The notes under the pieces were generated by a model. It searched no databases and was not told the origin of the DNA. It saw only the letters and a list, made by a program, of their open reading frames with translations. From contig NZ_CP095046.1 of NCBI RefSeq assembly GCF_022919215.1, forward strand, positions 1,726,501-1,790,500: 64,000 bases of DNA, given 5' to 3'. This DNA is from Hymenobacter cellulosilyticus. Its GTDB lineage: Bacteria; Bacteroidota; Bacteroidia; Cytophagales; Hymenobacteraceae. This document shows, one piece after another, positions 1,494 through 61,063 of the stretch. A program made the translations under genes and the position numbers. Numbering within the stretch: the stretch's first letter is position 1; each line of letters begins with the position of its first letter.

Positions 1494-2689
1494 TCAGGGA
1501 AGCTCGATAAAGAAGGTAGTGCCTTTGTGCTCAAAGCTTTCCAGCCAGATCTTGCCCCCGTGCAGCAGCACAATCTGCTTGGTGATGAAAAGGCCCAGCC
1601 CAGTGGTGGCAGTACCATAGAGACCCTCCCGCGCGGCCGTGCTGAACTTGTCGAAAACGTGCTCCTGCAGCTCGGCCGGTATGCCCTGGCCGGTATCCTG
1701 CACCTGAATGTGAACCCGGCCCTGCTGTTCCTGTAGCCTGACGTAAATGTGGCCTCCCCGGGGCGTAAACTTCAGGGCGTTGGTTAGCAGATTGTCCAGG
1801 ACGCGGCTGAAGCGGCCGGGATGAATGTGAGCCTCCACTACTTCGGCCGGCAGCTCCAGCACCAGCTCGATGCCCTGCTGCTGGGCTACCACCCGGTACA
1901 CCAGCAGGCGGGCGTCCAGGTAGTCGTTCATATTGACGCGCTGCTTTTCCATGCGTTTGGCATCCAGCTCGCCTAGGTACAGCACGTCCTTGAGCAGGGC
2001 ATTGGCATCGGTGCAGGCTTGCTCTATCATGCTCAAAAAGGCCTTGGTTTCCTTCTGCGTATTGGCCGGGCAGGTGCTCAGCAGGGTTTCGTCGCGCTGC
2101 AGCACCTCCACCAGCATCTGAATGTTGGTCAGCGGGTTTTTCAGGTCGTGGGCAATGAGATGCATGATGGTTTCCTGCGCGTCGTACAGGCGCTTGAGGG
2201 TTTCCTCAGCTGCCTTCCGCTCCGAAATATCCTCCAAAGTAGTATAGCCCATCAGGCCGGCTTCATCTTCGAACAGAATCGAAGTGACCCGACACCAAAA
2301 CGAGGAGCCGTCGGGGCGCACCAGGCAGGTTTCGAGCGAGAAGCTTGGCGTCTTGTGCCCCAGAGGCGTTCCTGCAGCAGCTCCCAGTCGTAGCGGTGAT
2401 GCGGGTGCGCAAAGTCCAGAATGCGCCGGCCCACCAGCGCACCGGCACTGCCCACGCCCAGCATATCAGCCAGGGCCGCGTTGGCCTGCCGGATGGTCAG
2501 GTCAGGGGCAATGATTTTCTGGCCCAGGGGCGAATTCTCAAACACCGTCCGGAAGCGCCGCTGGCTTTGCGCGTGCTGTTCCCGCTGCTGCGCCAGCTCC
2601 TGCGCCGCGGCCTGATACTGGCGCAGCTGCCGGATTTCTTCTCGCAGGGCATTCATTTCTATTTCGGCAGAGTCACTGGGGCTAAACAT
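1494..2689 (-). CDS. PAS-domain sensor histidine kinase (one apparent frameshift)
   Basis: A cytosolic-looking kinase of about 398 residues once a single base is restored. The order is an N-terminal coiled coil (residues 10-50), one PAS domain (about 50-170, from FRTVFENSPLG to a PAC-like segment), a HisKA dimerisation helix with the phospho-acceptor histidine in LIAHDLKNPL, and an HATPase_c domain with the N box LLTNALKF, G1 DTGQGIP and G2 TTGLGLFITKQ. No membrane segment is seen, so it should sense an internal signal or the redox/energy state through PAS. The reading frame breaks at the C run 2358-2361 (plus strand). One more G on the coding strand turns the text into WGHKTPSFSLETCLVRPDG and joins the two halves. 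No response regulator is adjacent, so this is an orphan kinase. Confidence 0.85.
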
Positions 2690-2968
2690 GAGCAGGGGTA
2701 GTATCCATGAAGCGGTGGAGGCGGGATACTGCTGACAAGGTACGGCCCGGCGGCCAGTCCGTTCCAGACTTTTCAGTATTTAGAAAAGACACTCGACGGT
2801 GCCGGCGCCTGGCCCGCAAAAGACTGCTCAGGTATAAGATGTTGATAATCTTTGTAGTAGTGAAAAGCCCAGAGCTGGGCGTTTGAGGCTCCGCCCTGAA
2901 ACTCGTACTTTAGAGGTTCCAACTGGAGCCTGCCCGCCGGGTTCCGACCACCGCCAACTGCTACCACC

Positions 2969-3592
2969 GTGTTTATAGAACCCCGCGTCGGCACGAGCCG
3001 CGATACGCCCCGCCGGGGCTGGATTGAAGTTGTTTGTGGCTCCATGTTTTCGGGCAAAACCGAAGAGCTCATTCGCCGGCTGAACCGGGCCAAAATTGCC
3101 CGGCAGCGCGTCGAGATATTCAAGCCCGCCCTCGATACCCGCTACCACGACCATAACGTGGTGTCGCACAACGCTAATAGCATCCGCTCCACGCCCGTGC
3201 CCATTGCCCAGGAAATGCTGCTGCTGGCCGGCGCCTGCGACGTAGTGGGCGTCGACGAGGCCCAGTTCTTTGATGAGTCCTTGGTGGAGGTCTGCACCCA
3301 GCTGGCCAACCGCGGCACCCGCGTCATCGTGGCCGGCCTCGACATGGATTTTATGGGCAAGCCTTTTGGCCCCATGCCCACGCTGATGGCCATTGCCGAG
3401 TTTGTAACCAAGGTGCACGCCGTGTGCGTGTGCTGCGGCGAGCTGGCCACGTATTCCTTCCGCATTGCCGCTTCCGACGACAAGATCCTGCTGGGCGAAA
3501 CCGATTCGTACGAGGCGCGCTGCCGGGCCTGCTTCCTGGAAGGCATGAAGGAAAAAACGACGGAGCCCACAGTCACCGCCGCAAAGCACTAA
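2969..3592 (+). CDS. tdk: Thymidine kinase, type II
   Basis: Phosphorylates thymidine with ATP in the pyrimidine salvage pathway. The 207 residues show the P-loop GSMFSGKT at 24-31 and the Walker B-like DEAQFFD at 96-102, with the catalytic Glu97. Two zinc-binding pairs, Cys153/Cys156 and Cys185/Cys188, are typical of the short tetrameric TK family. The best start is a GTG at 2969; there is no ATG before the P-loop apart from the Met inside it, and the residues [16 protein letters not shown] fit my memory of Hymenobacter relatives. The intergenic stretch of 279 bases before it separates it from the divergent PAS kinase and should hold both promoters. Confidence 0.93.
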
Positions 3593-6958: not shown

Positions 6959-6965
6959 TACGGTT

Positions 6966-7444
6966 TTAACGGACTTTCACGATTTCCAACTCAAACACCA
7001 GGTTGGTATTAGGCGGCACGATAAACTTCGAGTCGTCGTCGGGATTAAGCACGCCCCGGGCACCGTAGGCCAGAGCGGCCGGAATCCAGACCCGGGCCCG
7101 GCTGCCCTGGGGCAAGAGCAGCAAGATTTCATCCCAGCCCGGAATAACCTCTCCCCGGCCTACGCGCAACCGCAACGGCTTGCCCTGGCCCACCGACGAG
7201 TCGAAGATGTGGCCGTCGGGCAAAAAACCGGTGTAGTGCACCAACATCCGGTCGCCGATCCGGGCCTGAGGGCCCGTTCCTGGCTGCCGGACGGTGTAGC
7301 GCACCCCGCTGGCGGTTCGTTGGCTGAGCACGGTGTCGGCCAGCATGGCGGGGCGGGGTGGGGCAGTTTGGGCGTGGGCCCGCGGCCCGGACCCAGCGTG
7401 AGCATTGCGCTCAGGCCCGTGGAAAAAAGCCAGATGCTGTGCAT
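6966..7444 (-). CDS. FKBP-type peptidyl-prolyl isomerase 1 of the cluster (frameshift in the signal region)
   Basis: The 126-residue C-terminal part is one clear FKBP domain: VHYTGFLPDGHIFDSS, the VIPGWDEILLLLP loop, WIPAALAYGARG and the last strand NTNLVFELEIVKV. An N-terminal export sequence (MHSIWLFSTGLSAMLTL) lies in another frame starting at ATG 7444. Adding one base at the G run 7376-7378 (plus strand) joins the two as a 159-residue exported protein with a cleavage-like HAQ. Unlike its three neighbours it has no lipobox cysteine. It is the last gene of the four-FKBP array and should accelerate Xaa-Pro folding in the periplasm. If the frameshift is real, translation could start at Met 7346 and give a cytosolic isomerase. 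Confidence 0.75.
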
Positions 7445-7453: not shown

Positions 7454-8007
7454 TTACTGAACCTGCTTGATTTCCATATAGAACTGCAGCGGCTCATCCC
7501 GGGAATGCTGTTGCTGCCGTACTGCCCGTAAGCCAGGTAAGAGGGAATGAAGACCTGCTTCTGGTCGCCGGGGCGCATCAGCTTCAGGGCCTCTTCCCAG
7601 CCCCGGATAACCTGGCCCTGACCGACTACTACCTCGGTGCACTCGCAGAGGGTACGGTTGCCGTAGGATTTGTCGAAAATCTGGTCTTCGTACGCTTCCC
7701 GGATATAGCTGCCGATGTACTTCACCTGTACCTTGTTGCCGGGTTTGATCAGCTCACCGCTGCCATCCTTAATCTTTACCAGGTACAAGCCCGACTCCGT
7801 ACGCTGGTAGTTGCTGCTGCTGATGTTGTGACGCGTGAAGTAGGCTTGAATCAGGGCGTCATCCACCTTGCGGAATTCCTCTTCGTGGGCTTTAGCGGCT
7901 TTCACTGCGTCGGAATCCGTATTGCAGGAAGCCAGTAGCAGGGGAGCGGCCAACAGCAGCCACACCGCCAGGCGGGTAACTATCGAGCGGGGGAACATTG
8001 TTTTCAT
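7454..8007 (-). CDS. FKBP-type peptidyl-prolyl isomerase 2, lipoprotein (frameshift near the end)
   Basis: A 184-residue lipoprotein after restoring one base. The signal peptide MKTMFPRSIVTRLAVWLLLAAPLLLASC ends in a lipobox with Cys at about 28. A helical spacer follows, then an FKBP domain (VQVKYIGSYIREAYEDQIFDKS, VIRGWEEALKLMRPGD, VFIPSYLAYGQYGS). The domain is divergent: an extra loop with RTLCECTEVVV replaces the usual PF-F-L strand. The frame breaks in the C run 7498-7500. One extra base gives the proper FKBP end IPGDEPLQFYMEIKQVQ and a stop at 7454. It is probably anchored to the outer or inner membrane facing the periplasm. The spacing of its neighbours suggests one unit with nrnA, as in the gldI neighbourhood of gliding Bacteroidota. 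Confidence 0.8.
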
Positions 8008-8063
8008 CTCGTTATGCTTGTTCTCTGGTACTAAAAAACGCCGGGCGGGCCCGGAGTTGGGAT

Positions 8064-14463: not shown

Positions 14464-14487
14464 TAGTTTATAATGTAAACTAGTTTA
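14464..14487. promoter_or_regulatory. Palindromic operator in front of the membrane-protein operon
   Basis: Three copies of one half site: TAGTTTA at 14464-14470, its reverse complement TAAACTA at 14476-14482, and TAGTTTA again at 14481-14487. The last two form the perfect 12-bp palindrome TAAACTAGTTTA; the first two form an inverted repeat with spacer TAATG. The array runs into the -7 element, so a bound protein would block RNA polymerase. The regulator encoded at 16086 in the same operon is the obvious candidate (inference). Confidence 0.6.
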
Positions 14488-14493
14488 TGTTTG
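14486..14493 (+). promoter_or_regulatory. -7 promoter element TATGTTTG
   Basis: Full match to TAnnTTTG, 43 bases before the ATG at 14536, overlapping the last operator half site. The other 290 bases back to the permease start contain no gene that I can support. Confidence 0.55.
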
Positions 14494-14535
14494 TATCACT
14501 CAAGCACACATCCACAACCTCAACCCTTTAGCACT

Positions 14536-15114
14536 ATGTCGACCGCCACCACTTTCGTTTCCGCTCCCGCTTCTGCCGCTGGTCAGCCGCTGCCTATCAC
14601 GCCCCAGGAGTTGGCTACCAACGCTACTGACTACTTGCTCTGGGGTACGGCTCTGGGCACGGCGGCTCTGGTACAGGCCGCCGTGCCGAACCTGCAGGGC
14701 CTGCCGTTCCGCGTGGCCATTGCCGGCGCCGGCCTCACGGCTTTTGCCTTTCACTTCTACCGCGGCTACCGGCTGCCCGAGCGTTCGGGGCAGGGCGAGG
14801 CGGTGCGGTTGCTGCGCCTGGCTACCTGGGTAGTACTGGCCGTACTACCGGCTCTAGTGCCCAAGCTGGGCTGGTCCACGGTGCTGCCCTTGATGCTGTT
14901 TGCCATTGGTACGCGCACTTTCGTGGCCGGCGGCATCCTGCAGCTGCGCACCCTGATTTTTGGCGGGGCGGCGGCCTGGGTATTCGGCACTCTGGCTTTG
15001 CGCTTCCAGGCACCAACTGACCAGATGCTGCTTTTGCTGGCTACTGCGGCGGCCGCTTTGCTGGTGCCCGGGCCGTACTGCGCGCTGCCGCCCGGCGCTA
15101 GTTTCCGTTGCTGA
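14536..15114 (+). CDS. Small integral membrane protein, paralogue of the gene at 15509 (frameshift at the end)
   Basis: About 190 residues. A cytosolic start of 30 residues is followed by six hydrophobic segments in three pairs. It resembles the protein at 15509 throughout: DYLLWG matches DLLLWG near the start, and the pattern F-AGGILQLRTLIFGGAAAW matches FATGGALRFRPLVLGGAACW near residue 140. At the end the read frame gives an odd PYCALPPGASFRC tail. Restoring one G at the run 15070-15072 yields PGAVLRAAARR with a stop at 15101, which matches PGHLLKARFRR in the paralogue, so 15101 is probably the true end. It is the first gene of the unit controlled from 14464. The biochemical role is unknown. 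Confidence 0.7.
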   Translation: MSTATTFVSAPASAAGQPLPITPQELATNATDYLLWGTALGTAALVQAAVPNLQGLPFRVAIAGAGLTAFAFHFYRGYRLPERSGQGEAVRLLRLATWVVLAVLPALVPKLGWSTVLPLMLFAIGTRTFVAGGILQLRTLIFGGAAAWVFGTLALRFQAPTDQMLLLLATAAAALLVPGPYCALPPGASFRC

Positions 15115-16466: not shown

Positions 16467-17074
<608 letters not shown>

Positions 17075-19036: not shown

Positions 19037-19281
19037 ATGCAGATGGAGGGGAGAAAGCGGTATAGCAGTGTCGGGAAGGCGCATTGCAGAATCCGGGCCA
19101 ATTTTCTAAAAGGCGACGCGCCCGGCTGCCCAGGCCACGAAGGTAGCACGGTTCGTCTTGTCGTAATCATTTACGCTACCCGAAATGATAACGAAAAGCG
19201 GGAGCGGGCAGTGTGCCGAGCGTCTGGTTGGCAAATTCGGGGGCATTGCTTTCTAGATGTGGCGCACGCGCCCATGAATCC

Positions 19282-19289
19282 TATCTTTG
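19282..19289 (+). promoter_or_regulatory. -7 promoter element TATCTTTG for aspS
   Basis: Full match to TAnnTTTG, 43 bases before the aspS ATG at 19332. No clean -33 box is seen at 19-22 bases. Confidence 0.5.
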
Positions 19290-19331
19290 CGCCGAGCGTC
19301 CCGCTTTCTTCATCCCGAATATCCCTAGTTT

Positions 19332-21094
19332 ATGCTCCGTACGCACACTTGCGGCGAACTTCGCCCCGACCATATTGGCCAAACCGTAACCCTCGCCGGC
19401 TGGGTGCAGCGCACCCGCGACAAGGGCGGCATTCTCTGGATTGATTTGCGCGACCGGTACGGCATCACCCAGCTGGCCCTGGAAGAAGGCGTGGAAACCG
19501 AGCAGGTGCGGGCCCAGGCCCGGGAGCTGGGCCGCGAGTTTGTGCTGAGCGTAACGGGTAAAGTAGCCGAGCGCCACTCCAAAAACGACAAGATGCCCAC
19601 CGGCGGCATCGAAATCCGGGTGGAGACGCTCAACGTGCTGAACCCGGCCAAGCTGCCGCCCTTCCTGATTGAGGACGAAACCGACGGCGGCGACGACCTG
19701 CGCATGAAGTACCGCTACCTCGATTTGCGCCGCAACCCGGTGCGCAACAACCTGATGCTGCGCCACCGCATGGCCCAGGCCGTGCGCCGCTACCTCGACG
19801 GGCAGCAGTTTATCGAAGTAGAAACCCCGGTGCTGATTAAAAGCACGCCCGAAGGAGCCCGCGACTTTGTGGTGCCCTCGCGCATGAACCCCGGCGAGTT
19901 TTACGCCCTGCCCCAGTCGCCCCAGACCTTCAAGCAGCTGCTGATGGTGTCGGGCTTCGACCGGTACTTCCAGATCGTGAAGTGCTTCCGCGACGAAGAC
20001 CTGCGCGCCGACCGGCAGCCGGAATTCACCCAGATTGACTGCGAAATGGCTTTCGTGGAGCAGGAAGACATCCTGAGTACTTTCGAAGGCCTGGTGCAGT
20101 ACCTGTTCCGGGAAGTGAAAGGCCTGGAAATCGGGACCCTGCCCCGCATGACCTACGCCGACGCCATGCGCTACTACGGCAACGACAAGCCCGACACGCG
20201 CTTTGAAATGAAGTTTGTGGAACTCAACGACGTGGTAAAAGGCCAGGGCTTCCCCGTGTTCGACGCGGCTGGTTTGGTAGTCGGCATCAACGCCCACAAC
20301 TCGGCCATGTATACCCGCAAGCAGCTCGACGAACTGACCGAGTTTGTGAAGCGGCCCCAGGTGGGCGCCACCGGCTTGGTGTACGCCCGCGTAGAGCCCG
20401 ACGGCAATGTGAAGTCGTCGGTCGACAAGTTCTACTCCCAGGACGAGCTGCAGAAGTGGAAAGCCGCTTTCAACGCCCAGCCCGGCGACCTGCTGCTAAT
20501 TCTGGCTGGGGAGCCCAACAAAACCCGCAAGGCCCTCTCGGAGCTGCGCTTGGAAATGGGCAGCGTATGGGTCTGCGCGACAAGGACGTGTTTTCGCCGC
20601 TGTGGGTGGTTGATTTCCCGCTGCTGGAATACATCGAGGAGGAAGGCCGCTACTTTGCCATGCACCACCCCTTCACTTCGCCCAAGCCCGAGGACGTAGC
20701 CCTGCTCGACAACCCCGCCACCATCGGCGAGGTGCGGGCCAATGCCTACGACATGGTCATTAACGGTGTAGAAGTGGGCGGCGGCTCTATCCGCATCCAC
20801 GACCGGGGCGTGCAGGCCCGCATGTTCAGCCTGCTCGGTTTCTCGGATGAGGAAGCTAAGGCCCAGTTCGGCTTCCTGCTCGACGCCTTCGAGTACGGCG
20901 CCCCGCCCCACGGCGGCATTGCCTTCGGCTTCGACCGTCTCTGCAGCCTCTTCGGCGGCGCCGACTCGATTCGGGACTTCATTGCCTTCCCCAAGAACAA
21001 CTCCGGCCGCGACGTTATGATTGACTCGCCCTCTCCCATTTCCGGGGCTCAGCTCAAGGAGTTGAGCATTGCCACAGCGGTGGAGAAGAAGTAG
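19332..21094 (+). CDS. aspS: Aspartyl-tRNA synthetase (apparent frameshift)
   Basis: 587 residues after adding one base, the length of the bacterial-type enzyme. It charges tRNA-Asp with aspartate. Regions in order: the anticodon-binding OB fold ([31 protein letters not shown]), class II motif 1 ([25 protein letters not shown]), motif 2 ([18 protein letters not shown]), the bacterial GAD insert (about 280-410), and motif 3 ([15 protein letters not shown]). The frame breaks at the G run 20558-20560: ATGGGCAG should be ATGGGGCAG, giving [13 protein letters not shown]. Since the gene is essential, a real lesion is not plausible. It follows its own promoter and has no obvious operon partner. Confidence 0.95.
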
Positions 21095-21097
21095 GTA

Positions 21098-25974: not shown

Positions 25975-26066
25975 AGCTGATTCTGAGTTGGCAACCCTGT
26001 GGGCAGTTCAACTGCGAGCAAGCTGCTCACATTATTATGTAGGCGCAAGCAGGGCCGTTAGCCCCG

Positions 26067-40350: not shown

Positions 40351-40868
40351 TTAGAAATTCCTTTCTCCGGCTTCGCGCTTACCCAGCATTACGGCTCCAA
40401 CCATAGCGGCTAGGAACAGCACCGAGGCCAGCTCGAAGGGCAGCAGGTACTTGGTGTAGAGAATCATGCCCAACTGGCTTACCATACCAATCTGCGAGTT
40501 GAACACCGGCGCGTTGAACGTGGTGCCGGGCTGCACATCGCGCAGGGCAGCCACCATCACGACCAGCAACAAGCCCCGGCCACCGCCGCCGCTACCTTCG
40601 ATAAAGTCGATTTGTGGGGTTCCGTGTCGGCGTTCAGGTTCAGGAACATAATCACGAACAGGAACAGTACCATAATGGCACCGGCGTACACGATGATGTT
40701 GACGGCGGCCAAGAACTGCGCGTTCAGAATCAGGTAGTGACCCGAGAGCGAGAAGAACGTCAGAATCAGGAACAGCACGCTGTGTACCGGGTTTTTGGCC
40801 AGTACTACGCCAAGGGCCGCAAACAAAGCCACAAACGACAGGAAGAAAAACAGGGAAGAAGAGGCCAT
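40351..40868 (-). CDS. nuoJ: NADH-quinone oxidoreductase subunit J (apparent frameshift)
   Basis: 172 residues after correction. It is a membrane subunit of complex I with five helices. Family blocks are [62 protein letters not shown] and the closing [24 protein letters not shown]. The frame fails at the C run 40574-40577 (plus strand). One base gives [14 protein letters not shown] and rejoins the two parts. Met 40868 is the first one that yields a normal N-terminus. It is the last gene of the nuoA-J unit. Confidence 0.93.
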
Positions 40869-40947
40869 TGGCGGAAAGTAGCGCGAATGTGAAAAGGTAA
40901 AACCGGCCATCCGAAAGCAGGGCTTCAAGATGGCAGGAAGTATTCGA

Positions 40948-41555: not shown

Positions 41556-42637
41556 TTACTTAATAACACCGCCCAGAATCAGGCCGCCGGTGAGCAGGAT
41601 GTTGAAAATGGCCAGCGGGATCAGGATGGTCCAGCCCAAGCGCATCAGCTGGTCGTAGCGGAAGCGGGGCAGAGTCCAGCGCACCCACATGAAGAAGAAG
41701 ATGAAGGCGAAGATCTTGCCGAACAGCAACAGCAGGCCCAGTACGGAAATCAGGTTCTGAGCCGACATCAGCTCCCAGCCCTGGGCCGATACCAGCCAGT
41801 CGCGCAGCTCGTACTGGAAGGGAAAGTTGAAGCCCCGAAGTAGAGCACGCTCATCACGGCCGAGGCCACGAAGACGTTTACATATTCGGCAAACAGGTAC
41901 AGACCCATTTTCATGGAGCTATACTCGGTGTGGTAGCCACCTACCAGCTCGGTTTCGCACTCGGGCAAGTCAAAAGGGGTGCGGTTGGTTTCGGCGAAGG
42001 CGCATACCAGGAAGATGATGAAGCCCAGGGGCTGTTTCACGATGTTCCAGAAGTGCCACTCGCCGGCTACCGATTGCTGCAAGGTGATTTCCCGCAGCGA
42101 AAGGGTGCCCGAAATCATCAGCACGGCGATGAGCGACATGCCCATGGCCAGTTCGTAGCTGATGTTCTGGGAGCCGGCCCGGATGGCGCCGAGCAAGGAG
42201 AACTTGTTGTTGGAGGCCCAGCCGCCAATCATCACCCCGTACACGCCCAACGACACAATGCCAAATACCCAGAGCATGCCGATGTTGACTTCGATGCCTT
42301 GTAGGTTGAATACGTTGTTGCCGAACTGCACCACGTTGCCAAACGGAATTACCGCCGACGACATCAGGGCCGTAATCATGGCCAGGCAGGGGCCCAGCAC
42401 GAACAGCGCCCGGTTGGCGCCAGCGGGGAAGAACTCTTCTTTGGTGAAGAGCTTCACTGCATCGGCTAAGGGCTGCAGCAAGCCAAAAGGACCGGCGCGG
42501 TCCGGGCCAACGCGGTCCTGCAGGAAGGCCGCAATAACCCGCTCAGCGTAGGTGCAATACGTAGCAATCAGCAACGAAACGCCGAAAACGACGAGGATAA
42601 CAATGGATTGCCAGCCTAAGGTTGGTAGTTCGATCAT
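41556..42637 (-). CDS. nuoH: NADH-quinone oxidoreductase subunit H (apparent frameshift)
   Basis: 360 residues after correction. It is an eight-helix membrane subunit forming the quinone chamber. Hallmarks are [43 protein letters not shown], the loop [43 protein letters not shown], and [32 protein letters not shown]. The frame breaks at the C run 41833-41836 (plus strand). One base gives [19 protein letters not shown]. The start at 42637 is 4 bases from the stop of the next gene upstream, so they are tightly coupled. Confidence 0.95.
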
Positions 42638-45064: not shown

Positions 45065-45639
45065 TTAATTGTTGGCTACGGCGTTAGGCAGGCCTTTTTC
45101 TTCCCAAGGAAGAGCCGGACGGTGCACCATGTTGCGCAGCTCGCTGAGCATGGCGTTTACCGAAGCTTCGGTGTCCAGCTGCTCGTAGTATTTCTCGCGC
45201 ACCTGCACCACGGGGGCAAAGCCGCAGGCGGCCAGGCATTCCACCTCTTTCAAGGTAAACAGGCCATCGGCCGAAGGACCGCCGCCAACCTTAGCGCCGG
45301 TGATACGCTCCAGTTCGGCCGTCAGCTCATCGGAGCCACGCAGCTGGCAGGGACCCGTACGGCAGATTTCCAGCACGTGCTTGCCCACCGGCTTGAGGTT
45401 GAACATGGTGTAGAAGGTCGAAACCTCGTACACCTCGATAGGTTTCACGCCCAATACCTCGGCCACCAGGTCCTGCACCTCGGGGGCTACCCAGCCCCGA
45501 ATTCGGCCTGGGCAATGTGCAGCACCGGCAGCATCGCCGACTTGCGGCGCTCCTCCGGGTATTGCTTGCAGATACGGTCTATTTCAGCCTTGGCAGCTTC
45601 CGAAAACTGGGGTTTCACGGGCGCGGTTGTCGATTCCAT
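45065..45639 (-). CDS. nuoE: NADH-quinone oxidoreductase subunit E (apparent frameshift)
   Basis: 191 residues after correction. It has the thioredoxin-like 2Fe-2S fold, with Cys ligands in CRTGPCQLRG and CLAACGFAPVVQV. The N-terminal helical part MESTTAPVKPQFSEAAKAEI ... LHIAQAEF lies in another frame and starts at ATG 45639. The break is at the C run 45495-45498 (plus strand); one base gives QAEFGGWVAPEVQDLVAEVLG. It partners NuoF in the NADH-oxidising tip. Confidence 0.93.
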
Positions 45640-47583: not shown

Positions 47584-48140
47584 CTACTTGATGTTGTAAG
47601 AAGCCAGCAGCGCCTGGTACTCGGGCGCGTTGCGGCGACGAATCGATTCGGTGCGGGCCAAGTCCTGCACCCGCATCAGGCCGTCGAGCACCTGCTCGGG
47701 GCGGGGCGGGCAGCCGGGCACGTACACGTCGACGGGAATGATCCGGTCGATGCCCTGCAGCACGGAGTAAGAGTCGAAGATACCACCCGAGCAGGCGCAG
47801 GCGCCCATGGCCAGTACCCAGCGGGGCTCGGCCATCTGCTCGTACACCTGCTTCACGATGGGCGCCATTTTCTTGGCGATGGTGCCCATCACCATCAGCA
47901 GGTCGGCCTGCCGGGGCGAGAAGCTAGGACGCTCCGAGCCAAAGCGGGAGATGTCGTAGTGGGAGCCCATGGTAGCCATGAACTCGATGCCGCAGCAGGA
48001 AGTGGCGAAGGGCAAAGGCCACAGGGAGTTGGCGCGGGCCATGCCCACGACCTGCTCCAGCGAGGTTGCGAAAAAGCCAGCGCCTTCCACACCCTCGGGG
48101 CGTCCACCATCTTTATTTCAGGAACACGAATATCGCTCAT
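47584..48140 (-). CDS. nuoB: NADH-quinone oxidoreductase subunit B (apparent frameshift)
   Basis: 185 residues after correction. It holds the terminal 4Fe-4S cluster N2: the adjacent cysteines in [16 protein letters not shown], a third in [14 protein letters not shown] and a fourth in [10 protein letters not shown]. The frame breaks at the G run 48097-48100 (plus strand). One base gives [18 protein letters not shown], joining the start [10 protein letters not shown] to the cluster domain. It directly follows nuoA. Confidence 0.94.
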
Positions 48141-48218: not shown

Positions 48219-48613
48219 TTAGGCGTGCGTGCCAGTCCACTTCAGGATGCCCTTTTTGATGACATAGGCAAAACCTGCCATCAGCAGGGCCAGGAACACA
48301 ATCATCTGCAGGAATCCGTCCCAGCCCAGGGTGCGGAAATTCACGGCCCAGGGGTACATGAAGATTACTTCCACGTCGAAGAGCACGAACAGGATGGCTG
48401 TGAGGAAGTATTTAATCGAAATCGGGGTGCGGGCATTGCCCACCGACTCGATACCACACTCGAAAGAAGCGTCTTTCACCGTGCTCTGCCGCTTGGGCCG
48501 ACGAGGTGAGACACAATCATGGCGAAGGCCACGAAGGCAATGGCCAGGCCGAATTGCACCACAATGGGCAGAAAATCAACCGGCTGGTAATTAGTGGTTA
48601 CAGCGAGAAGCAT
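48219..48613 (-). CDS. nuoA: NADH-quinone oxidoreductase subunit A (apparent frameshift)
   Basis: 131 residues after correction and three membrane helices. ATG 48613 gives MLLAVTTNYQPVDFLPIV and a first helix in another frame. The family block SFECGIESVGNARTPISIKYFLTAILFVLFDVEVIFMYPWAV contains the Cys loop and the buried acidic pair. The break is at the G run 48495-48497 (plus strand); one base gives HLVGPKRQSTVKDASFECG. It is the first gene of the complex I set and is preceded by a very good promoter. Confidence 0.93.
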
Positions 48614-50920: not shown

Positions 50921-53900
50921 ATGCTTTCACAATCACACAGGAAAATCCTTTTACAGGGAGCGGCGCTGCTTACTGCTAGTAGCCTGCAAACGTTTGTGGC
51001 TTCGGCGGCTCCGCTGCGGCCAGCACCAGAAACGAGCCTGCAGCCCCAGCAGGTGGCCAACGTCCGCGTGGCCGGTCGGGTTACCCAGGCTAACGGGAAG
51101 GGCTACCGGGCGTTACGGTGGTGGTGAAGGGGAGTTCGGTGGGCACTAGTACCGATGCTACCGGTAATTTCAGCCTGGAAGTGCCCGAAGGCAGCGTGCT
51201 GGTATTCAGCTTTGTGGGCTACTCGCGCCGGGAAGTACCCGTAACGGAAGCCACTACCAGCTTCAACGTGACGCTGAGCGAAGACGCGCAGGCGCTCAAA
51301 GAAGTAGTAGTAGTAGGTTATGGCACCCAGGAGCGGCAGAGCGTAACGGGCGCCGTGGCTTCGGTGTCGGGGCGCGACGTAGCCGCGCAGCCCGTATCCG
51401 ACGCAGCCCAGGCCATTCAGGGCCGGGCAGCCGGTGTGCAGGTGGTATCCAACTCAGGCTCGCCGGGTACGGGCGGCACTTCGGTGCGGGTGCGGGGCAT
51501 TACCTCGGCCGGCAACAACTCCCCGCTGTATGTGGTGGACGGGTTTCCGCTGCCCTCGGCAGTGGATGGCAATGGCAATGCCACGGGTAACGAGCTGAAC
51601 AGCATCAACCCCAACGACATTGAAAGCATCGACGTGTTGAAGGACGCCTCGGCCACGGCTATTTACGGGGTACGGGCCGCCAACGGCGTTGTTATTGTAA
51701 CTACCAAGCGGGGCAAAGCCGGCGTGTCGAGCATCAACCTGGATGCCTACGTGGGTACCCAGCAGGTGTGGCGGCAGATTCCGCTGCTCAACGCCCAGGA
51801 GTTTGCCCAGCTCAACAACGAAGCCCGCCGCAACGGGGGCCTCGACGTGATTCCGAAATACGCCAACCCCAGCTCCCTGGGAACCGGTACCAACTGGCTC
51901 GACGAGATTTTCCGGCCGGCCAAGATTCAGAACTACGCTTTGTCGGCCACGGGGGCAGTGAAAAAGCCCGTTACGCCGCCAGCGCCGGCTATTTCCAGCA
52001 GGACGGCACCATTATCAACTCCAGCTTTCAGCGCTTTACGTTGCGGGCCAACGGGGAAGTGCAGCTCAGCAAAGTCCTCAAAATCGGTAATACGCTGGGC
52101 TTGACCCACCAGGAAGAACAGCCCCTAAACAACGAAAACAACGAGTTTTCGGGCGTTATCCAGCTGGCTCTGCAAGCCCCGCCCACCGCGCCGGCCTTCA
52201 ACCCGAACGGTACCTACTACGAGTTTACCAGCGCCGACAACTACGGCGAGGAAAACCCCGTGACAGCCGCCCGCCGGCCTCAGATCCGGAACAACCGCAA
52301 CCGGGTAACTTCCACGTTCTACGCCGAGCTGGAGCCTCTGAAAGGTTTGCGCCTGCGCACCAACGTGGGCACCGACCTGCAGTTTTTGCAGGGTGACCAA
52401 TTTTTTCCCTCCATTGTCGGTTCTTCCAAGTACCCGACTTCCCAGGCCACGGCCAACAGCAGCTCCAACTACAGCCCGAGCTACCTGATTGAGAACACGC
52501 TGACCTACGATAAGCTTATTGGCAACAACCACCAGTTTAGCTTGCTGCTGGGGCAGTCGGCCCAGCAGTTCGACAACTTCTACCTCGGCGGTGCCCGCAC
52601 CGGCTACAGCACCAACAACCTAACAATTCTGGACCGTGGGCCGGTAAACTCCCAGCTCAGCAACAACGGCGGCAACAGCCGGACCCGCCTGGCCAGCTAC
52701 TTTGGCCGGGCTAACTACGAGTTTGCCGGTAAATACCTGTTCCAGGCCATTCTGCGCTACGATGGTTCCTCGGCTTTTGCGCCTGGCAACCAGTTTGGCT
52801 TCTTCCCCGGGGCCTCGGCCGGCTGGCGCCTCTCGGAGGAAGAGTTCCTGAAAGACAACGCGTACGTAAGCAACCTGAAGCTGCGCGTGGGTTATGGCCG
52901 GGTGGGCAATCCGCTCAACGCGGGCACGTTTGCCTACCTGACCACCGTCAACTCGACGCCGCAGTCCAACAACGGCGTGCCCGGCACGGGCTATGTGTTC
53001 GGTACTGGCAACCAGCTGCAGGTAATCGGCGGCGCCCCAACCCGTTTGCAGAACACGGACCTGCGCTGGGAAAACAACGAGCAGTTCAACGTGGGTATCG
53101 ACGTGGGGCTGTGGAAAAACCGCCTCTCGGGCTCTGTCGACCTGTACCGCCGCACCTCACCCAACCTGATTGCGGCCGTGCCGGTGACCTACGTGTCGGG
53201 TACCAGTGAGAGCATCAACACCAACGCGGCAGCCTCTACCAACCGCGGCATCGACTTGGCCATTACCTCCAACAACTTCGCCGGGGATGCTGGCGGGCTG
53301 AGCTGGACTACTTCGTTGAACGTGAGTGCCTACCGCAACGAAATTACCTCGCTCGGTGCTGGCAAGCCCTTCGACGGGCAAAACACCCGGGGCGGGGGTA
53401 ACCTGGTGCGCTACGAGGCTGGTGTACCGTTCGGCTCCTTCTACGGCTACGTGGCTGATGGCCTGTTTCAGACTCCCGAGGACGTGAAAAACCACGCCGT
53501 GCAGGTGGCCGGTACCGACCCGACTAAGAGCACGGCCCCCGGCGACATCCGCTTCAAGGACCTCAACAACGACGGTATCATCAACGACCAGGACCGCACC
53601 TTTATCGGCGACCCGAACCCGAGCTTCACGTATGGCCTGAACAACACGCTGGGCTTTAAGGGCTTCGATCTGAACATCTTCCTGCAGGGCTCCCAGGGCA
53701 ACGACGTGTATAACCTGAACCGCTACTACACCGAGGGCGGCCTCTACGGCGCTTCCAACGCCAGCACGATTACCCTGGACCGCTGGACCGGCGCCGGCAC
53801 GAGCAACGACATTCCCCGCGCCGTAGCCGGTGACCCTAACCAGAACCTGCGCATCTCCTCCCACTACATCGAGGACGGCTCCTATATGCGCGTGAAACTG

Positions 53901-54113
53901 CTCACACTGGGCTACACGCTGCCCGTGGAACTGGGTAAGAAGATTTACACCCAGCGGGTGCGCGTCTATGTGAGCAGCCAGAACCTGCTAACCTTCACCA
54001 AATACAAAGGCTTCGACCCGGAGCTGGGCAATCAGGGCGGCAGCTTCGGCGTCGATCGGGGCGTGTATCCCCAGGCCCGCACCTTCCTGGCCGGCATCAA
54101 CATCGGCTTTTAA
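50921..54113 (+). CDS. SusC-type TonB-dependent outer-membrane transporter (two apparent frameshifts)
   Basis: About 1,064 residues after correction. A signal peptide (MLSQSHRKILLQGAALLTASSLQTFVASA) is followed by a carboxypeptidase-D-like domain (VRVAGRVTQANGKGLPGVTVVVKG), a TonB box region and plug (EVVVVGYGTQERQSVTGAVASVSG, SVRVRGITSAGNNSPLYVVDGFP, IESIDVLKDASATAIYGVRAANGVVIVTTKRGK), and a barrel ending GVYPQARTFLAGINIGF. It imports glycan fragments together with the SusD partner. Frames break at G runs 51100-51102 and 51951-51955; one base at each gives GKGLPGVTV and SATGGSEKARYAASAGYF. It is the first gene of the glycan locus. Confidence 0.92.
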
Positions 54114-54152
54114 GCCAGCGGCCGGCCGAGTTGCCTTTTTCTCCCCTCAAAC

Positions 54153-55675
54153 GTGATGACCATGTTACAAAAACCCACTACCCAACGCTTACCCAAACGC
54201 GCGCTGATTCTGGCCCTGGGCACCCTGAGCCTGCTCAGCGGCTGCGGCAAGGACTTCCTGGAATTGCAGCCCCGCAATGCCGTTACCACCGAAATCTTTT
54301 ATAAAACCCAGAACGACGCTATTCAGGCCACCAACGCGGTGTACTCCCAGCTGCAGCAAAACGGGATGTACAACTACTCGCTCTGGGGTATCGGCGACGT
54401 GATGTCGGACAACTCCTACTTGGGTGGGGTGGGGCCGCCGACGGCATCGAGTTTCAGCAGCTCGACAACTTTACCATTCCGGCCACCAACCCGCTCGTGA
54501 CCAGTCACTGGCAGCGCGCCTACCTGGGTGTGGGCCAGGCCAACCAGGTACTGACCCGCGTGCCGGCCATTGAAATGGATGCCGCCATCAAGAACCGCTG
54601 CCTGGGCGAGGCCGCCTTCCTGCGGGCCCTGTATTACTTCTACCTCGTGCGGGGCTTCGGCGACGTGCCGCTGGTGCTGACACCCCCGGCCACGGCCGCC
54701 GAAGCGGCCAGCCTGAGCCGCACGCCTGCCGCCCAGGTATATGCCCAGATTGAAAAAGACCTGCTCGACGCCATTACCAAGCTGCCCGCATCCTATTCGG
54801 GCGACGACGTGGGACGGGCCACGAAATGGTCGGCCACGGCCCTGCTGGCCAAGGTGTACCTGACCGAGAAGAAAATGCCGGAAGCCGCCGTGCAGGCCCG
54901 GGCTGTTATTGCCGGCTCCGGCAAAAGCCTGTGGACCAATTTCGGCGACAATTTCAAGGTAGAAAATGAGAACGGGCAGGAGTCGCTGTTTGAGGTGCAG
55001 TTTAAAAACGGACTGAGCAGCTACACGACCGACGGCCCCGGCTCGGTAATGAACGAGTTCTGGGGCGCCCGCTTCTTTGGTAGCCCGTACGTGGTATCGT
55101 CGGGTGGGTACGGCTTCAACATCCCGGAAAAGGAATTTGTGGACGGCTTCGAGCCCGGCGACCTGCGCAAGGGTCCCACGGTGTTCGTGCCCGGCGACAA
55201 ATACCCCGACGGGCAGGTGCAGCCGGCCTCGCTCGTCGGCGACCCGTACGGCTTCAACATCCGCAAGTTCTTTGTGGGCACCGTAAACGTGAACAACTGG
55301 GACTCGCCCCTGAACGTGCCGATACTGCGCCTAGCCGAGGTGTACCTGATCCTGGCCGAGGCCGTGGGTCCAACTCCCGAAGGCCTGGATGCCATCAACA
55401 AGGTGCGGCGCCGGGCGTTCGGCTTCCCTCTCAATGCGCCTTCGGCCAAGGACCTCACGGCAGCTACGCCTGACTTCAACGCGGCCGTGCTGCGGGAGCG
55501 GCGCTACGAGCTGGCCTTCGAAATGGACCGCTGGTACGACCTGAAGCGCACCGACAATCTCGTCAAGACGATGAATGCCCAGGGCAAACCCGCTAAGGAC
55601 TTCAACAACCTGCTGCCCATTCCGCAGTCGGAGCGCAACGTGAATCCGAACCTAAGCCAGAATCCGGGCTATTAA
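54153..55675 (+). CDS. SusD-type outer-membrane glycan-binding lipoprotein (apparent frameshift)
   Basis: 507 residues after correction. The lipobox is LLSGC at about residue 29. The family start CGKDFLELQPRNAVTTEIFYKTQNDAIQATNAVYSQLQ is followed by TPR-like helices (RCLGEAAFLRALYYFYLVRGFGDVPLVL), RWYDLKRTDNLVK and the end NLLPIPQSERNVNPNLSQNPGY. It caps the SusC barrel and binds oligosaccharide at the surface. The frame breaks at the G run 54426-54429; one base gives YLGGGGAADGIEFQQLDNF. It starts 39 bases after SusC in the same operon. Confidence 0.92.
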
Positions 55676-55822: not shown

Positions 55823-58103
55823 ATGCTTTACAAATCCCCCGTTTTGCGGCCCTGCTGGGCACCACAGTCTGTTCTGCGATGATGAGCATGTACGTTGCCC
55901 AAAGCAAGTCGGGCCCGACGACCGACAAGCCGGCCCCCAAGGAAAACCAGCAGGCCCGACTCACGGCTAATGACGACAAGGTTAATGCCCTGCTCAGCAA
56001 GCTGACTCTGGAAGAGAAAATCAAGATGGTGCACGCCGTATCGTCGTTCAACTCGGGTGGCGTGGAGCGCCTCAATATTCCCGAACTGGAAACCTCCGAC
56101 GGCCCGCACGGGGTGCGCTTCGAGCACGGCCGCGGCTGGACGGCCCAGAAAGGCGTGGACGACGCCGGCACCTACCTGCCCACCAACAACACCCTGGCTT
56201 CGACCTGGAACCCGGCTCTGGGCTACGCCTACGGCTCGGTGCTGGGCGCGGAAGCCAACTACCGCGGCAAAGACGTGATTTTGGGCCCCGGCATCAACAT
56301 CATCCGGGCCCCCTTGAACGGGCGCAACTTTGAGTACCTGAGCGAAGACCCCTTCCTAGTCTCGAAAATGGTGGTGGGCTACATCAAAGGCGTGCAGGAC
56401 CAGGGCGTATCGGCCTGCGTGAAGCACTACGCGGCCAACAACCAGGAAATTCACCGCAACGACGTGGACGTGGACATGAGCGAGCGGGCCCTGCGCGAAA
56501 TCTACCTGCCGGGCTTCAAGGCTGCCGTGCAGGAAGGCGGGGTGAACACGCTGATGGGTTCCTACAACAAGTTCCGCGGCACCTGGGCCACCGAAAACGC
56601 CTACCTGATGAACGACATTCTGAAAAAGGAATGGGGCTTCAACGGCGTGGTGATGAGTGACTGGGGCTCGGTGCACAACACCCAGAACGCCCTGCGCAAC
56701 GGCACCGACCTGGAAATGGGCACCGACTTGGTGCTGGCCTACCAGGGCACGTCCCAGACCTCGGGCAGCATCAACCAGGAAAAGCTCAGTGAAACAGTAT
56801 ACGACCGGTTTTTCCTGGGCAATGCCGCCCTCGACGCCATCAAGAAAGACCCCAGCCTGCAGCCCCTGCTCGACGACAAAGTACGCCGCATTCTACGGGT
56901 GATGTACGCTACCAACATGCTGGATGGAGCTAAACGCAAAGCCGGCTCCTACAACACCAAGCAGCACCAGGCCACGGCCCTGAAAGTAGCTGAGGAAGGC
57001 ATTGTACTGCTCAAAAACGACGGCAACATTCTGCCCTGAAGAAAACCGTGAAAAGTGTGGCCGTTATCGGGGCCAATGCCACCCGCGAAAACGCCATGGG
57101 TGGCGGCAGTGCCCAGGTGAAAGCCAAGTATGAAATTACTCCCCTGCAGGGCCTGAAAAATGCCTTGGGCACCAAGGCTAAGATTACCTACGCGCCCGGC
57201 TACACCGTGGCCCCGGGCCAGAAAGCTGATGCCAAGCTGATTGCCGAAGCGGTAGCCGCGGCCAAAGCCTCGGAAGTAGCCATCATCGTGGGCGGCTGGA
57301 TTCACGGCTACGACTACAGCAAGTGGGACCAGAACGCCTACGACGCCGAAAGCGTGGACAAGCCCGACATGAACATGCCCTTCGGCCAGGATGAGCTGGT
57401 ACAGGCTGTGCTTAAAGCCAACCCCAACACCGTAGTGGTGCTGCTCGGCGGCGGCCCGATTGATGTGTCGGCCTGGGCCGGTCAGGCCAAAGGCATTGTG
57501 GAAGCCTGGTACCCCGGTATGGAAGGCGGCAACGCCCTGGCGCACATTCTGTTTGGCGACGTGAACCCCTCGGGCAAGCTGCCCCTGACGTTCCCCGTGA
57601 AGCTGGAAGACTCGCCGGCCCACAAGATTGGCGAATACCCCAGCACGCCCGGCAACCCGCTCAAGCAGTTCTATAAGGACGACATCTTCGTGGGTTACCG
57701 CTACTTCGACACCTACAAAGTAGCTCCGCAGTTTGCCTTCGGCCACGGCTTGAGCTATACCACCTTCAAGTACGACAAGCTAACCGTAACGCCCGGTAAG
57801 CAGAGCGCCACCGTGAAGCTGACGGTGACCAATACCGGCAAAACCGCCGGGGCCGAAGTGGTGCAGGTGTACGTGCACGACGAGCAGGCTGCCGTGAAGC
57901 GCCCCGAGAAGGAGCTTAAGGGCTTCGACAAGGTTTTCCTCAAGCCCGGCGAGTCGAAAACCGTAACGGTGAACCTCGATTCGAATGCCTTCCAGTACTA
58001 CGACGAGGGTAAAAAGCAGTGGGTCCTGGAGCCCGGCAAGTTCGACGTGCTGGTGGGTAGCTCCTCCCGCGACATTCGTCTCACCGGCAACGTGACCCTG
58101 TAA
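55823..58103 (+). CDS. Beta-glucosidase, glycoside hydrolase family 3 (two apparent frameshifts)
   Basis: 760 residues after correction. The start MLYKSPRFAALLGTTVCSAM... is an export signal, visible only after restoring a base in the C run 55836-55840. The GH3 N-terminal barrel has LLSKLTLEEKIKMVHAV, LETSDGPHGVRFE, KHYAANNQE and the nucleophile Asp in GVVMSDWGS. The C-terminal sandwich follows (VAVIGANATRENAMGGGSAQV, AIIVGG), and a fibronectin-III-like tail closes (VTNTGKTAGAEVVQVYVHD). The second lesion is at 57034-57036; one base gives NILPLKKTVKSVAVIG. It should release glucose from beta-linked oligosaccharides in the periplasm, downstream of SusC/D import. Some GH3 enzymes are xylosidases, so specificity is not certain. 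Confidence 0.88.
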
Positions 58104-58208
58104 GCAAACCCTGGCCGTCCAATTTCTTCCGCCGCTGGGTACGTCTGCTCGTGCTTGGGTGGCGGAAGAAAACGGACGGTTTTGGGTAGGCCTACTTATC
58201 CGCCTTCT

Positions 58209-61063
58209 ATGGTCAATTCCTATTTCCGTGTTTTTCTTTTAAGTGGCGCTATCCTGCTGCCTGCCGTTGCCCTGGCCCAAAAAGCCACGGTGCAGCGGCA
58301 GGCAGACGGCGTTGTGGTGCATCTGCCGCGCCGCAACGACAACGACCCGCGCACGGTGCGCCTGCAGGTAGTATCCGACCAGATTATCCGCGTGCAGGCT
58401 AGTCCGCAGGAGGTAATTGCCGCGCCGCCCAGCTTGATGGTGGTGCCGCAGCAGCCTACCGCCGTGAAGTGGCAATACAAGGAAAAAAAAGGCCTCGGCA
58501 CCATTAGCACCGGCGCGTTGCGGGCTACCGTGTCGCTCAGTACCGGCGAGGTTAGCTTCACCGATTCTCAGGGCCGCACCATTCTGCAGGAGCGGCCGGG
58601 TGGGGGCAAAACCTTCCGGCCCATCGTAGCCGACGGGCACCCGCTCTACCAGCTGGAGCAGGTCTTCGACTCGCCGGAAGGAGAGGGGCTCTACGGCCTG
58701 GGTCAGCACCAAAACGGCACGATGAACTACCGCGGCCAGCAGGTGGAATTGGCCCAGAACAACACCGACGTAGCCGTACCCTTCCTCGTGTCAAGCCGTA
58801 ACTACGGCCTGCTCTGGGACAACTACTCCATCACCAAAGTCGGGGATACGCGCGACTACCAGCCGCTGTCCTCGCTCAAGCTTTATTCCAAGGAAGGCAC
58901 CCAGGGCTGGCTCACGGCCACGTATGTGCGCAAGGACAAGCCGGCGGAAGTGCTGGTGCAGCGGCCCGAATCGGTGCTGAACTACGAGTACCTGGAGGAC
59001 CAGAAAAACTTTCCGGCCGGCCTCAAGCTGGGTAATACGCTAGTCAGCTGGGAAGGCTCGATTGAGTCGGGCACGGCGGGGCTACACCACTTCCTGCTCA
59101 AGAATGCGGGCTACGTCAAGTTCTACCTCGACGGCAAGCTGCAAGTGGAGAAGTGGCGGCAGGCCTGGAACCCGGGCACGGCGGTAGTAGCCTTGCAGCT
59201 GGAAGCCGGCCGTAAATACCCCATCAGAATCGAGTGGAACCCCGACGGCGACGAATCCTATTTGGGTTTGAAATGGTTGAGTCCGTTGCTCGGCCAGAGT
59301 CAGCACGAGTACGGGTTGGCCTCCGAAGCCGGCCAAAGTCTGGACTACTACTTCGTGCACGGCCAGACCCTGGACGAAGTCATCAGCGGTTACCGGCAGC
59401 TCACGGGCAAGGCCCCGATGGTGCCGCGCTGGGCTATGGGGCTGTGGCAAAGTCGGGAACGGTACAAAACCCAGCAGGAAATGCTGGACGTGGCCGCCGA
59501 GTTTCGCAAGCGCCGCATTCCCATCGACAATATCGTGCTCGACTGGTCGTACTGGAAGCCCGCCGAGTGGGGTAGCCAGGAGTTTGACCCCAGCCGCTTC
59601 CCCAACCCCGACGGGCTGATTAAAACCCTGCACGACCAGAACCTGCACTTCATGATTTCGGTGTGGGCCAAGTTTTACGAGGGCATCCCGGCTTACCGCG
59701 ACTTTCAAAGCAAAGGCTACCTCTACCCGCGCAACATTGCCAACCGCACCAAAGACTGGATTGCGCCCGGCTACACGTCCACGTTCTACGACGCCTTCAA
59801 CCCCAGGCCCGCCAGGCGTTCTGGGATTTGATGAACACCAAGCTCTTCACCAAGGGCATCGACGCTTGGTGGATGGACGCCTCCGAGCCCGACATTTACT
59901 CTAACACCTCGGTGCCCACCCGCAAGGAGCTGATGACGCCCACAGCGTTGGGTTCGGCCACCCAGTATTTCAACGGCTTTCCGCTTCAGAATGCAAAGGG
60001 AATCTACGAGGGGCAGCGCCAAACGGCGCCCAATCAGCGCGTATTTCTGCTGACCCGCTCGGGCTACGCCGGCTCCCAGCGCTACGCGGCGGCCATCTGG
60101 AGCGGCGACATTGGCTCCCGCTGGGAAGACTTCAAGAACCAGATTCCGGCCGGCCTGAACTTGTCGTTGTCGGGCATTCCGTACTGGACCACCGACATCG
60201 GCGGCTTTGCCGTGGAGCGGCGCTACGAAAAGCCCAACGCCCAGGACCTGGAAGAGTGGCGGGAGCTGCAGGCGCGCTGGTTTCAGTTTGGGGCCTTTTG
60301 TCCGCTGTTTCGGGTGCACGGGCAGTTTCCCTTCCGGGAGATGTTCAACATTGCGCCCGAGACGCATCCAGCCTACCAAAGCATGCTCTACTACGACCAA
60401 CTGCGCTACCGCCTGATGCCGTATTTCTACTCCCTAGCCGGCCGGGTGCACCACGAAAACTACACCCTGATGCGGGGCCTGCAGATGGACTTCGCCGCCG
60501 ACCCCAACGTGCGCAGCATCGGCAGTCAGTTTATGTGCGGCCCCAGCTTGCTCGTCAGCCCCATTACCGAGTACCAGGCTCGGGAAAAGCCCCTGTATCT
60601 GCCCGCCGGTACGGGGTGGTACAACTTCTATACCGGCCAGCACCAGGCCGGCGGCCGGCAGATTGTGGAAGCCGCTCCGCTGGAACGCATGCCGCTGTTT
60701 GTGCCCGAAGGCGCCATCCTGCCTTTTGGCCCCGAAATCCAGTACGCCGCCGAAAAGCCTGCCGACCCGCTGACGCTCTACGTCTACACTGGCCGCGACG
60801 GGCAGTTTACGCTCTACGAGGACGAGGACGTGAACTACAACTACGAAAAGGGTGCCTTTGCCACCATTCCCCTGCGCTACGACGAAAAGGCCAAAACCCT
60901 GACCATCGGGGCCCGGCAGGGCGCGTTTCCGGGCATGACGACCCAGCGCACGTTTCGGGTAGTGGCCGTCAGCAAAGCCCGGCCTGTACCTGCTAACCTA
61001 ACCCAGACCGCGGGCCAAACCGTTAGCTATTCCGGGCAGGCCGTGACCGTGCCGGTAGAATAA
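58209..61063 (+). CDS. Alpha-xylosidase-like glycoside hydrolase family 31 with PA14 insert (apparent frameshift)
   Basis: 951 residues after correction, close to the length of known PA14-containing alpha-xylosidases. A signal peptide MVNSYFRVFLLSGAILLPAVALAQ is followed by an N-terminal sandwich with GEGLYGLGQHQNGTMNYRG. A PA14 insert (GLHHFLLKNAGYVKFYLDGK, RKYPIRIEWNPDGDESYLGLKW) lies at about 290-370. The catalytic barrel has the nucleophile in DAWWMDASEPD and the acid/base in AAIWSGDIGSRWEDF. The C-terminal sandwiches follow. The frame breaks at the C run 59801-59804; one base gives DAFNPQARQAFWDLM. Such enzymes remove alpha-xylose from xyloglucan oligosaccharides, so with the GH3 enzyme this suggests xyloglucan fragment use (inference). 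Alpha-glucosidase activity is an alternative. Confidence 0.88.

What the first reader, a model, noticed from the sequence alone, without database searches (positions are those of the whole stretch)
1494..61063. 28 one-base losses, all in G or C runs, break 19 genes
Positions (plus strand): 2358, 7376, 7498, 15070, 16885, 20558, 21695, 22139, 23237, 24475, 24939, 25026, 25227, 25664, 25840, 33071, 37610, 40574, 41833, 45495, 48097, 48495, 51100, 51951, 54426, 55836, 57034 and 59801. Each is a run of G or C, now 3-5 long. Adding one base of the same kind restores family sequence, and the corrected lengths are all divisible by three. No insertion and no A/T run is involved. Genes hit include aspS, sod and six nuo genes, which cannot all be dead. 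Seven hits fall in one kinase gene. This is most likely a platform or polishing artefact, so any pseudogene call in this genome should be doubted.
Basis: partly seen in the sequence, partly recalled or inferred. Interest (0 to 1): 0.7.

Follow-up and report, generated by a model that had tools for sequence, protein, structure and literature searches.

The report
Sequencing errors in G/C runs
The recorded DNA of this Hymenobacter-like bacterium lacks single letters in many runs of G or C, which makes healthy genes look broken; it is almost certainly a sequencing or assembly error and not biology.

Summary
27 of the 28 sites are one base short against at least one syntenic relative; the last, 37610, rests on two protein-family pieces in successive frames. 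The pattern is genome-wide. Over 464 kb compared with a close relative there are 114 one-base losses and 8 one-base gains. Of 112 localised losses, 104 touch a G/C run of three or more (92.9%; 16.8% for simulated random deletions). Assigned without favouring any base, loss rises with G/C run length: 36/2034 at length 4, 55/312 at 5, 10/21 at 6, against 3/1872 A/T runs of four or more. Hit and unhit genes show the same selective constraint. All three class II D/K/N-type synthetase genes found in the genome are in pieces, and a 16S rRNA G run is one base short in one of two full copies. Two other few-contig genomes of the genus carry the same signature; samples of seven others do not. This is homopolymer under-calling, probably in a long-read assembly never corrected with accurate reads. 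Reads and assembly method were not available, so the platform is open. Pseudogene calls in this genome should be distrusted.

The parts
1494..2689 (-). PAS/histidine kinase gene, one loss near 2358
   Evidence: 398-aa ORF in G052; net -1 there; HisKA and HATPase_c
6966..7444 (-). FKBP-type isomerase gene, one loss near 7376 (weakest alignment)
   Evidence: 158-159 aa ORFs in G052, G045, G001; net -1 in G052 and G045, -6 in G001; FKBP_C
7454..8010 (-). FKBP-type isomerase gene, one loss near 7498
   Evidence: 183-185 aa ORFs in 3 relatives; net -1 in 3 of 3; FKBP_C
14487..15101 (+). gene without a Pfam match, one loss near 15070
   Evidence: 188 and 204 aa ORFs in G052 and G001; net -1 in 2 of 2; no family at E 1e-5
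16468..17074 (-). superoxide dismutase gene (sod), one loss near 16885
   Evidence: 202-aa ORF in 5 relatives; net -1 in 5 of 5; Sod_Fe_N and Sod_Fe_C
19260..21094 (+). aspartyl-tRNA synthetase gene (aspS), one loss near 20558
   Evidence: 611-628 aa ORFs in 6 relatives; net -1 in 6 of 6; match of the window ORF ends at residue 411-421 in most relatives searched
21600..22620 (-). PhyH-family gene, losses near 21695 and 22139
   Evidence: 344-349 aa ORFs in 3 relatives; net -1 in 3 of 3 at both sites; PhyH
22984..25980 (+). two-component sensor kinase with regulator propeller, seven losses (23237, 24475, 24939, 25026, 25227, 25664, 25840)
   Evidence: 1025-1046 aa ORFs in G045, G001, G017, G041; frames switch by -1 at these places; Reg_prop, Y_Y_Y, HisKA_3, HATPase_c
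32569..34550 (-). NADH-quinone oxidoreductase chain 5 type gene (nuoL), one loss near 33071
   Evidence: 646-672 aa ORFs in 6 relatives; net -1 in 6 of 6; Proton_antipo_M/N
37204..38801 (-). DUF937 plus OmpA-domain gene, one loss near 37610; supported by family pieces only
   Evidence: DUF937 in the ORF up to the site; OmpA in the next piece in another frame; no syntenic DNA in the six relatives
40351..40874 (-). chain 6 type gene (nuoJ), one loss near 40574
   Evidence: 169-183 aa ORFs in 6 relatives; net -1 in 6 of 6; Oxidored_q3
41556..42637 (-). NADH dehydrogenase chain 1 type gene (nuoH), one loss near 41833
   Evidence: 359-388 aa ORFs in 6 relatives; net -1 in 6 of 6; NADHdh
45065..45639 (-). 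2Fe-2S thioredoxin-like subunit gene (nuoE), one loss near 45495
   Evidence: 191-192 aa ORFs in G045, G001, G017; net -1 in 4 of 5, 0 in G052; 2Fe-2S_thioredx
47584..48140 (-). 20 kDa subunit gene (nuoB), one loss near 48097
   Evidence: 184-204 aa ORFs in 5 relatives; net -1 in 5 of 5; Oxidored_q6
48219..48613 (-). chain 3 type gene (nuoA), one loss near 48495
   Evidence: 131-145 aa ORFs in 5 relatives; net -1 in 5 of 5, placed about ten bases away with G052; Oxidored_q4
50921..54113 (+). SusC-type TonB-dependent receptor gene, losses near 51095 (reader: 51100) and 51951
   Evidence: 1064 and 1067 aa ORFs in G052 and G045; net -1 in 2 of 2 at both; Plug, CarbopepD_reg_2
54126..55675 (+). 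SusD-type gene, one loss near 54426
   Evidence: 515 and 505 aa ORFs in G052 and G045; net -1 in 2 of 2; SusD_RagB
55823..58103 (+). glycoside hydrolase family 3 gene, losses near 55836 and 57034
   Evidence: 760-aa ORFs in G052 and G045; net -1 in 2 of 2 at both; Glyco_hydro_3
58209..61063 (+). glycoside hydrolase family 31 gene, one loss near 59801
   Evidence: 953 and 1015 aa ORFs in G052 and G045; net -1 in 2 of 2; Glyco_hydro_31

Best explanation
The losses are sequencing or consensus errors; the living cell very probably has the full runs and intact genes. The read technology or the polishing step under-counts the length of G and C runs, the more often the longer the run, and the assembly was not corrected with accurate reads. 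Shown: the one-base losses, their dependence on G/C and run length, their spread over the chromosome, unchanged constraint on the hit genes, and their presence in rRNA. Inferred: that a long-read-only assembly is the cause. Not determined: which platform.
For: 114 losses against 8 gains in 281 genes, 337,467 aligned bases. 104 of 112 localised losses touch a G/C run of three or more; 16.8% of 3000 random deletions do. G/C runs by length before loss: 36/2034 (4), 55/312 (5), 10/21 (6), 1/2 (7); A/T runs of four or more: 3/1872. No G/C run of six or more is left in the window; the syntenic stretches of G052 and G045 hold 4 and 10. Spread stretches of the chromosome: 96 losses, 6 gains in 400 kb; seven relatives: 0 to 2.5 losses per 100 kb. 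Scatter as run content predicts. Nonsynonymous/synonymous 0.351 in 85 hit genes, 0.336 in 173 unhit genes. All three class II D/K/N-type synthetase genes in pieces while 56 of 60 relatives list a full-length AspRS-type match (list cut) and G052 lists all three whole. The two full own rRNA operons differ at seven G/C runs, four of them in 23S and two in 16S; the compared parts of G052's copies show no one-base G/C-run difference.
Against: No reads, coverage or assembly method were seen. Not all losses fit: 5 of 112 touch no run of three or more and 3 fit A/T runs best. A published older-chemistry long-read case had more A/T than G/C deletions (PMC12007338), so near-exclusive G/C loss is not the general rule. 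The two own rRNA leaders also differ in two A runs, though G052's copies show A-run differences too. Six of 23 in-frame stops in hit genes lie away from gene ends and loss sites, in three genes, against 2 of 8 in unhit genes. The kinase gene has more hits than its run content predicts (7 sites, 5 of them in that count, 1.36 expected).
Confidence: 0.97

Rival explanations
1. The losses are real mutations: the genes are decaying pseudogenes, or the strain is a mismatch-repair hypermutator that slips in G/C runs.
For: Slippage in repair-deficient cells does favour homopolymers (general knowledge). Six of 23 in-frame stops in hit genes are not near gene ends or loss sites. A MutS-related second gene is shorter in this genome than in G052 (open frame 494 against 832 aa), itself perhaps one of the losses.
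Against: mutS1 and mutL lie in open frames of 935 and 671 aa. Gains are 14 times rarer than losses. Constraint is the same in hit and unhit genes. Genes that a cell needs are hit: aspS, two more class II synthetases, sod, six nuo genes.
Confidence: 0.015
2. The losses are real and the cell reads through them, by ribosomal frameshifting or by RNA polymerase slipping on the runs.
For: The frames continue after every site with family sequence intact.
Against: rRNA genes, which are not translated, show the same shortened runs and differ between copies. G/C runs of 3 to 5 with no shared flanking motif are hit. The extrapolated number, 1,500 to 2,000, is far beyond any known use of recoding (inference, general knowledge). 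Seven relatives lack the pattern.
Confidence: 0.005
3. The errors are real errors but driven by a DNA modification in this strain that distorts the signal at G/C runs.
For: Modified motifs are a known source of systematic long-read errors (general knowledge). Near-exclusive G/C loss is unusual beside the case in PMC12007338.
Against: Hit and unhit runs of the same length have similar flanks at positions -2 to +3 for lengths 4 and 5; length 6 and over has only 11 hit and 12 unhit runs. Two other genomes show the same G/C-run signature.
Confidence: 0.01

Closest known systems
Under-called homopolymers in an earlier PacBio genome of Clostridium autoethanogenum (PMC4687164; passages seen)
   Same: About 240 erroneous one-base deletions, most in homopolymers, causing false frameshifts; a subset checked by Sanger sequencing.
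   Different: Lower density (4.35 Mb genome), a low-GC organism, and A/T as well as G/C positions in the part of the table seen.
Gene-fragmenting indels in an older-chemistry long-read assembly, Kastor paper (PMC12007338; passages seen)
   Same: 59% GC genome, fewer than 2000 indels, 23.3% pseudogenes before correction, deletions after runs of four to five bases. The density is like that inferred here.
   Different: There A/T runs were hit about twice as often as G/C runs; here G/C almost alone.
Read-level nanopore run-length bias (PMC8486125; passages seen)
   Same: Run length is underestimated, C and G runs are worse than A and T runs, and more so with length.
   Different: Statistics of reads and not of an assembly; the platform of this genome is unknown.

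Membership tests
Homopolymer under-calling in an assembly | One-base losses greatly exceed gains | tested here: met
   114 against 8; also 4 of -2, 2 of +2, one +8 and one +11
Homopolymer under-calling in an assembly | Losses sit in homopolymers and rise with run length | tested here: met
   36/2034, 55/312, 10/21 for G/C runs of 4, 5, 6; 92.9% touch a G/C run of 3 or more, null 16.8%
Homopolymer under-calling in an assembly | Genome-wide, without regard to gene function, rRNA included | tested here: met
   96 losses in 20 spread stretches; aspS and other synthetases; 16S and 23S copies
Homopolymer under-calling in an assembly | A/T runs hit as well as G/C runs, as in PMC12007338 | tested here: not met
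   3 of 1872 A/T runs of four or more. This feature varies between platforms, so it bears on the platform and not on membership.
Homopolymer under-calling in an assembly | Reads or another method show the longer run | not testable with these tools
   No reads or assembly record are held
Genuine pseudogenes | Relaxed constraint in the hit genes | tested here: not met
   0.351 against 0.336
Genuine pseudogenes | Further disabling changes besides the losses | tested here: inconclusive
   17 of 23 in-frame stops in hit genes lie within 100 bases of a gene end or 60 of an event; six, in three genes, do not
Mismatch-repair hypermutator | Broken mutS or mutL | tested here: not met
   mutS1 open frame 935 aa, mutL 671 aa, both over the cut-off
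Programmed frameshifting | Confined to translated genes | tested here: not met
   16S and 23S rRNA copies carry the same kind of loss

The most novel reading that the evidence does not exclude
Something in the DNA of this and two other genomes of the genus, such as a modification or structure at G/C runs, makes sequencing fail there, so that the error map carries biological information about the strain.
Probability: 0.02. Interest if true: 0.4.

Novelty: not a real feature. Interest (0 to 1): 0.15.

Why it matters
The genome stands for its species in the collection searched here. 85 of 281 compared genes carry at least one false break, so pseudogene counts, pathway completeness and gene-loss claims drawn from it would be wrong. 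Two other few-contig genomes of the genus share the fault.

Tried and rejected
A flanking motif that would point to DNA methylation was sought and not seen. Hot spots along the chromosome were tested and not found. Decay of the seven-hit kinase gene was rejected because its frames align with relatives between the sites. Recoding was rejected because of rRNA. Two text searches for a paper behind this genome gave nothing usable (listings only), and two on PacBio-type errors gave general hits (listings only, apart from the papers whose passages are cited).

One search repeats it with the longest touched run of any base; the numbers are the ones used. Rows dropped: switches within 60 bases of gene ends and duplicate places (before that 124 of -1 and 15 of +1), two of 114 losses that could not be localised, and two ties between G/C and A/T. 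In one search's set, 20 of the 28 reported sites appear; the other eight lay near gene ends or outside the selected genes and rest. The frame-tracking model recovers 21 of 28 sites and calls two gains, so its rates are low estimates. Sample L130 overlaps L143 and L144, so the two 400 kb sets share 20 kb. In the reverse comparison G052 shows 38 gains and 10 losses against own frames. The first comparison of the second own rRNA copy failed because the strands were opposite and was redone. G052's two other rRNA copies aligned only in part.
Full report
Where the window lies. The window is C1:1726501-1790500 of a 6.09 Mb genome in 3 contigs, rated 95.48% complete. Its NuoF is 93% identical to that of Hymenobacter sp. 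CRA2, and 60 genomes of its genus were searched beside it.

The 28 sites. I aligned the window to syntenic DNA of six relatives. Frames taken from the relatives switch by -1 in the window at the reported places. Around the runs, 106 of 111 site-by-relative comparisons show a net loss of one base, and 27 of 28 sites have at least one such relative. Site 37610 has no syntenic DNA; the ORF before it matches DUF937 and the next piece, in another frame, matches OmpA positions 38-98. The genes were named from the relatives' intact copies. Weak spots: 7376 (poor alignment), 51100 (fits better at 51093-51095), 48495 (place varies with the relative), 45495 (G052 nets zero through a difference of its own) and 25664 (the relatives shown have another base at the gap). 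Four further -1 calls in the window (8577, 18453, 19117, 19312) and one +1 (8635) lie in badly aligned sequence near gene starts and are not counted as findings.

Not only this window. Over 464 kb compared with G052 (370,756 bases in aligned blocks, 86.3% identity) there were 281 comparable genes, 108 of them with a frame switch. After dropping switches within 60 bases of gene ends and duplicates, 114 were -1, 8 were +1, 4 were -2, 2 were +2, and there was one each of +8 and +11. With the roles reversed, G052 showed 38 of +1 and 10 of -1 against own frames. Of 112 localised losses, 104 touch a G/C run of three or more (92.9%), against 16.8% of 3000 simulated random deletions. Assigned to the longest touched run of any base, 102 fall to G/C, 3 to A/T, 2 are ties and 5 touch no run of three. 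By length before loss, G/C runs lost a base in 36 of 2034 (length 4), 55 of 312 (5), 10 of 21 (6) and 1 of 2 (7); A/T runs of four or more in 3 of 1872. The window has no G/C run of six or more, while the syntenic stretches of G052 and G045 have 4 and 10. Flanking bases do not separate hit from unhit runs of length 4 and 5.

Genome-wide. A frame-tracking model trained on G052 recovers 21 of the 28 sites. On 20 stretches spread over the chromosome it finds 96 losses and 6 gains in 400 kb. On samples of 40-100 kb from seven relatives (G052, G009, G045, G001, G003, G017, G041) it finds 0 to 2.5 losses per 100 kb; on G010 and G005, 19 and 22. Near these losses a G/C run of four or more lies within 30 bases in 100% (G010, 19 losses), 77% (G005, 22) and 70% (own, 96), against 24%, 29% and 33% at random places. 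G005 and G010 were chosen because their AspS, or AspS and NuoF, matches were split; the other 51 genomes searched were not run through the model. Extrapolated, the genome may hold 1,500 to 2,000 such losses (inference).

Why not biology. The three class II D/K/N-type synthetase genes found in this genome are each in two pieces in different open frames. In the cut listing, 56 of 60 relatives have a full-length AspRS-type match, and G052 has all three whole. G005, G010, G028 and G036 lack the full-length AspRS-type match in that list; G028 and G036 are 82% complete. Differences from G052 give the same ratio of nonsynonymous to synonymous codons in 85 hit genes (0.351) and 173 unhit genes (0.336). 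Of 23 in-frame stops in hit genes, 17 lie within 100 bases of a gene end or 60 of an event; six, in three genes, do not. mutS1 and mutL lie in long open frames. In rRNA the two full own operons differ at seven G/C runs: four in 23S, two in 16S and one in the leader. One is the 16S stretch GACGGGGGCCCGCACAAG, one G short in one copy, full in the other and in G052; that this stretch is nearly universal is recalled. The own leaders also differ in two A runs and in unalignable flanks; G052's copies too differ in A runs, but show no one-base G/C-run difference in the parts compared.

Known parallels. PMC4687164 (passages): about 240 erroneous deletions in an earlier PacBio genome. PMC12007338 (passages): fewer than 2000 indels and 23.3% pseudogenes in an older-chemistry long-read assembly of a 59% GC genome, but with A/T runs hit more. 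PMC8486125 (passages): nanopore reads underestimate run length, and C and G runs fare worse than A and T. [quoted passage not shown] The platform used here is unknown.

Verdict. It is a known kind of artefact and not a feature of the organism.

Noticed in passing
genomes G005 and G010 (L163-L172): Two other few-contig genomes of the genus (4 and 5 contigs, 94% and 93% complete) show 22 and 19 one-base losses per 100 kb, again near G/C runs.
   Followed up: partly
L214 and L215 (own rRNA operons): The two full rRNA operons of the genome differ at seven G/C runs, one being the 16S run next to the 907 primer site.
   Followed up: yes
window 22984-25980: The sensor kinase gene carries seven losses where its run content predicts about 1.4; perhaps the extreme of many genes, perhaps lower read depth there.
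   Followed up: partly
window 45480-45500 against G052 (L105): G052, the closest relative, has a one-base difference of its own in nuoE and no intact nuoE ORF was listed for it; the single-contig reference may hold a few errors too.
   Followed up: no
L223, own genome C1:4433432-4434043: A second MutS-related gene has an open frame of 494 aa here and 832 aa in G052, possibly another false break.
   Followed up: no
   Followed up: partly
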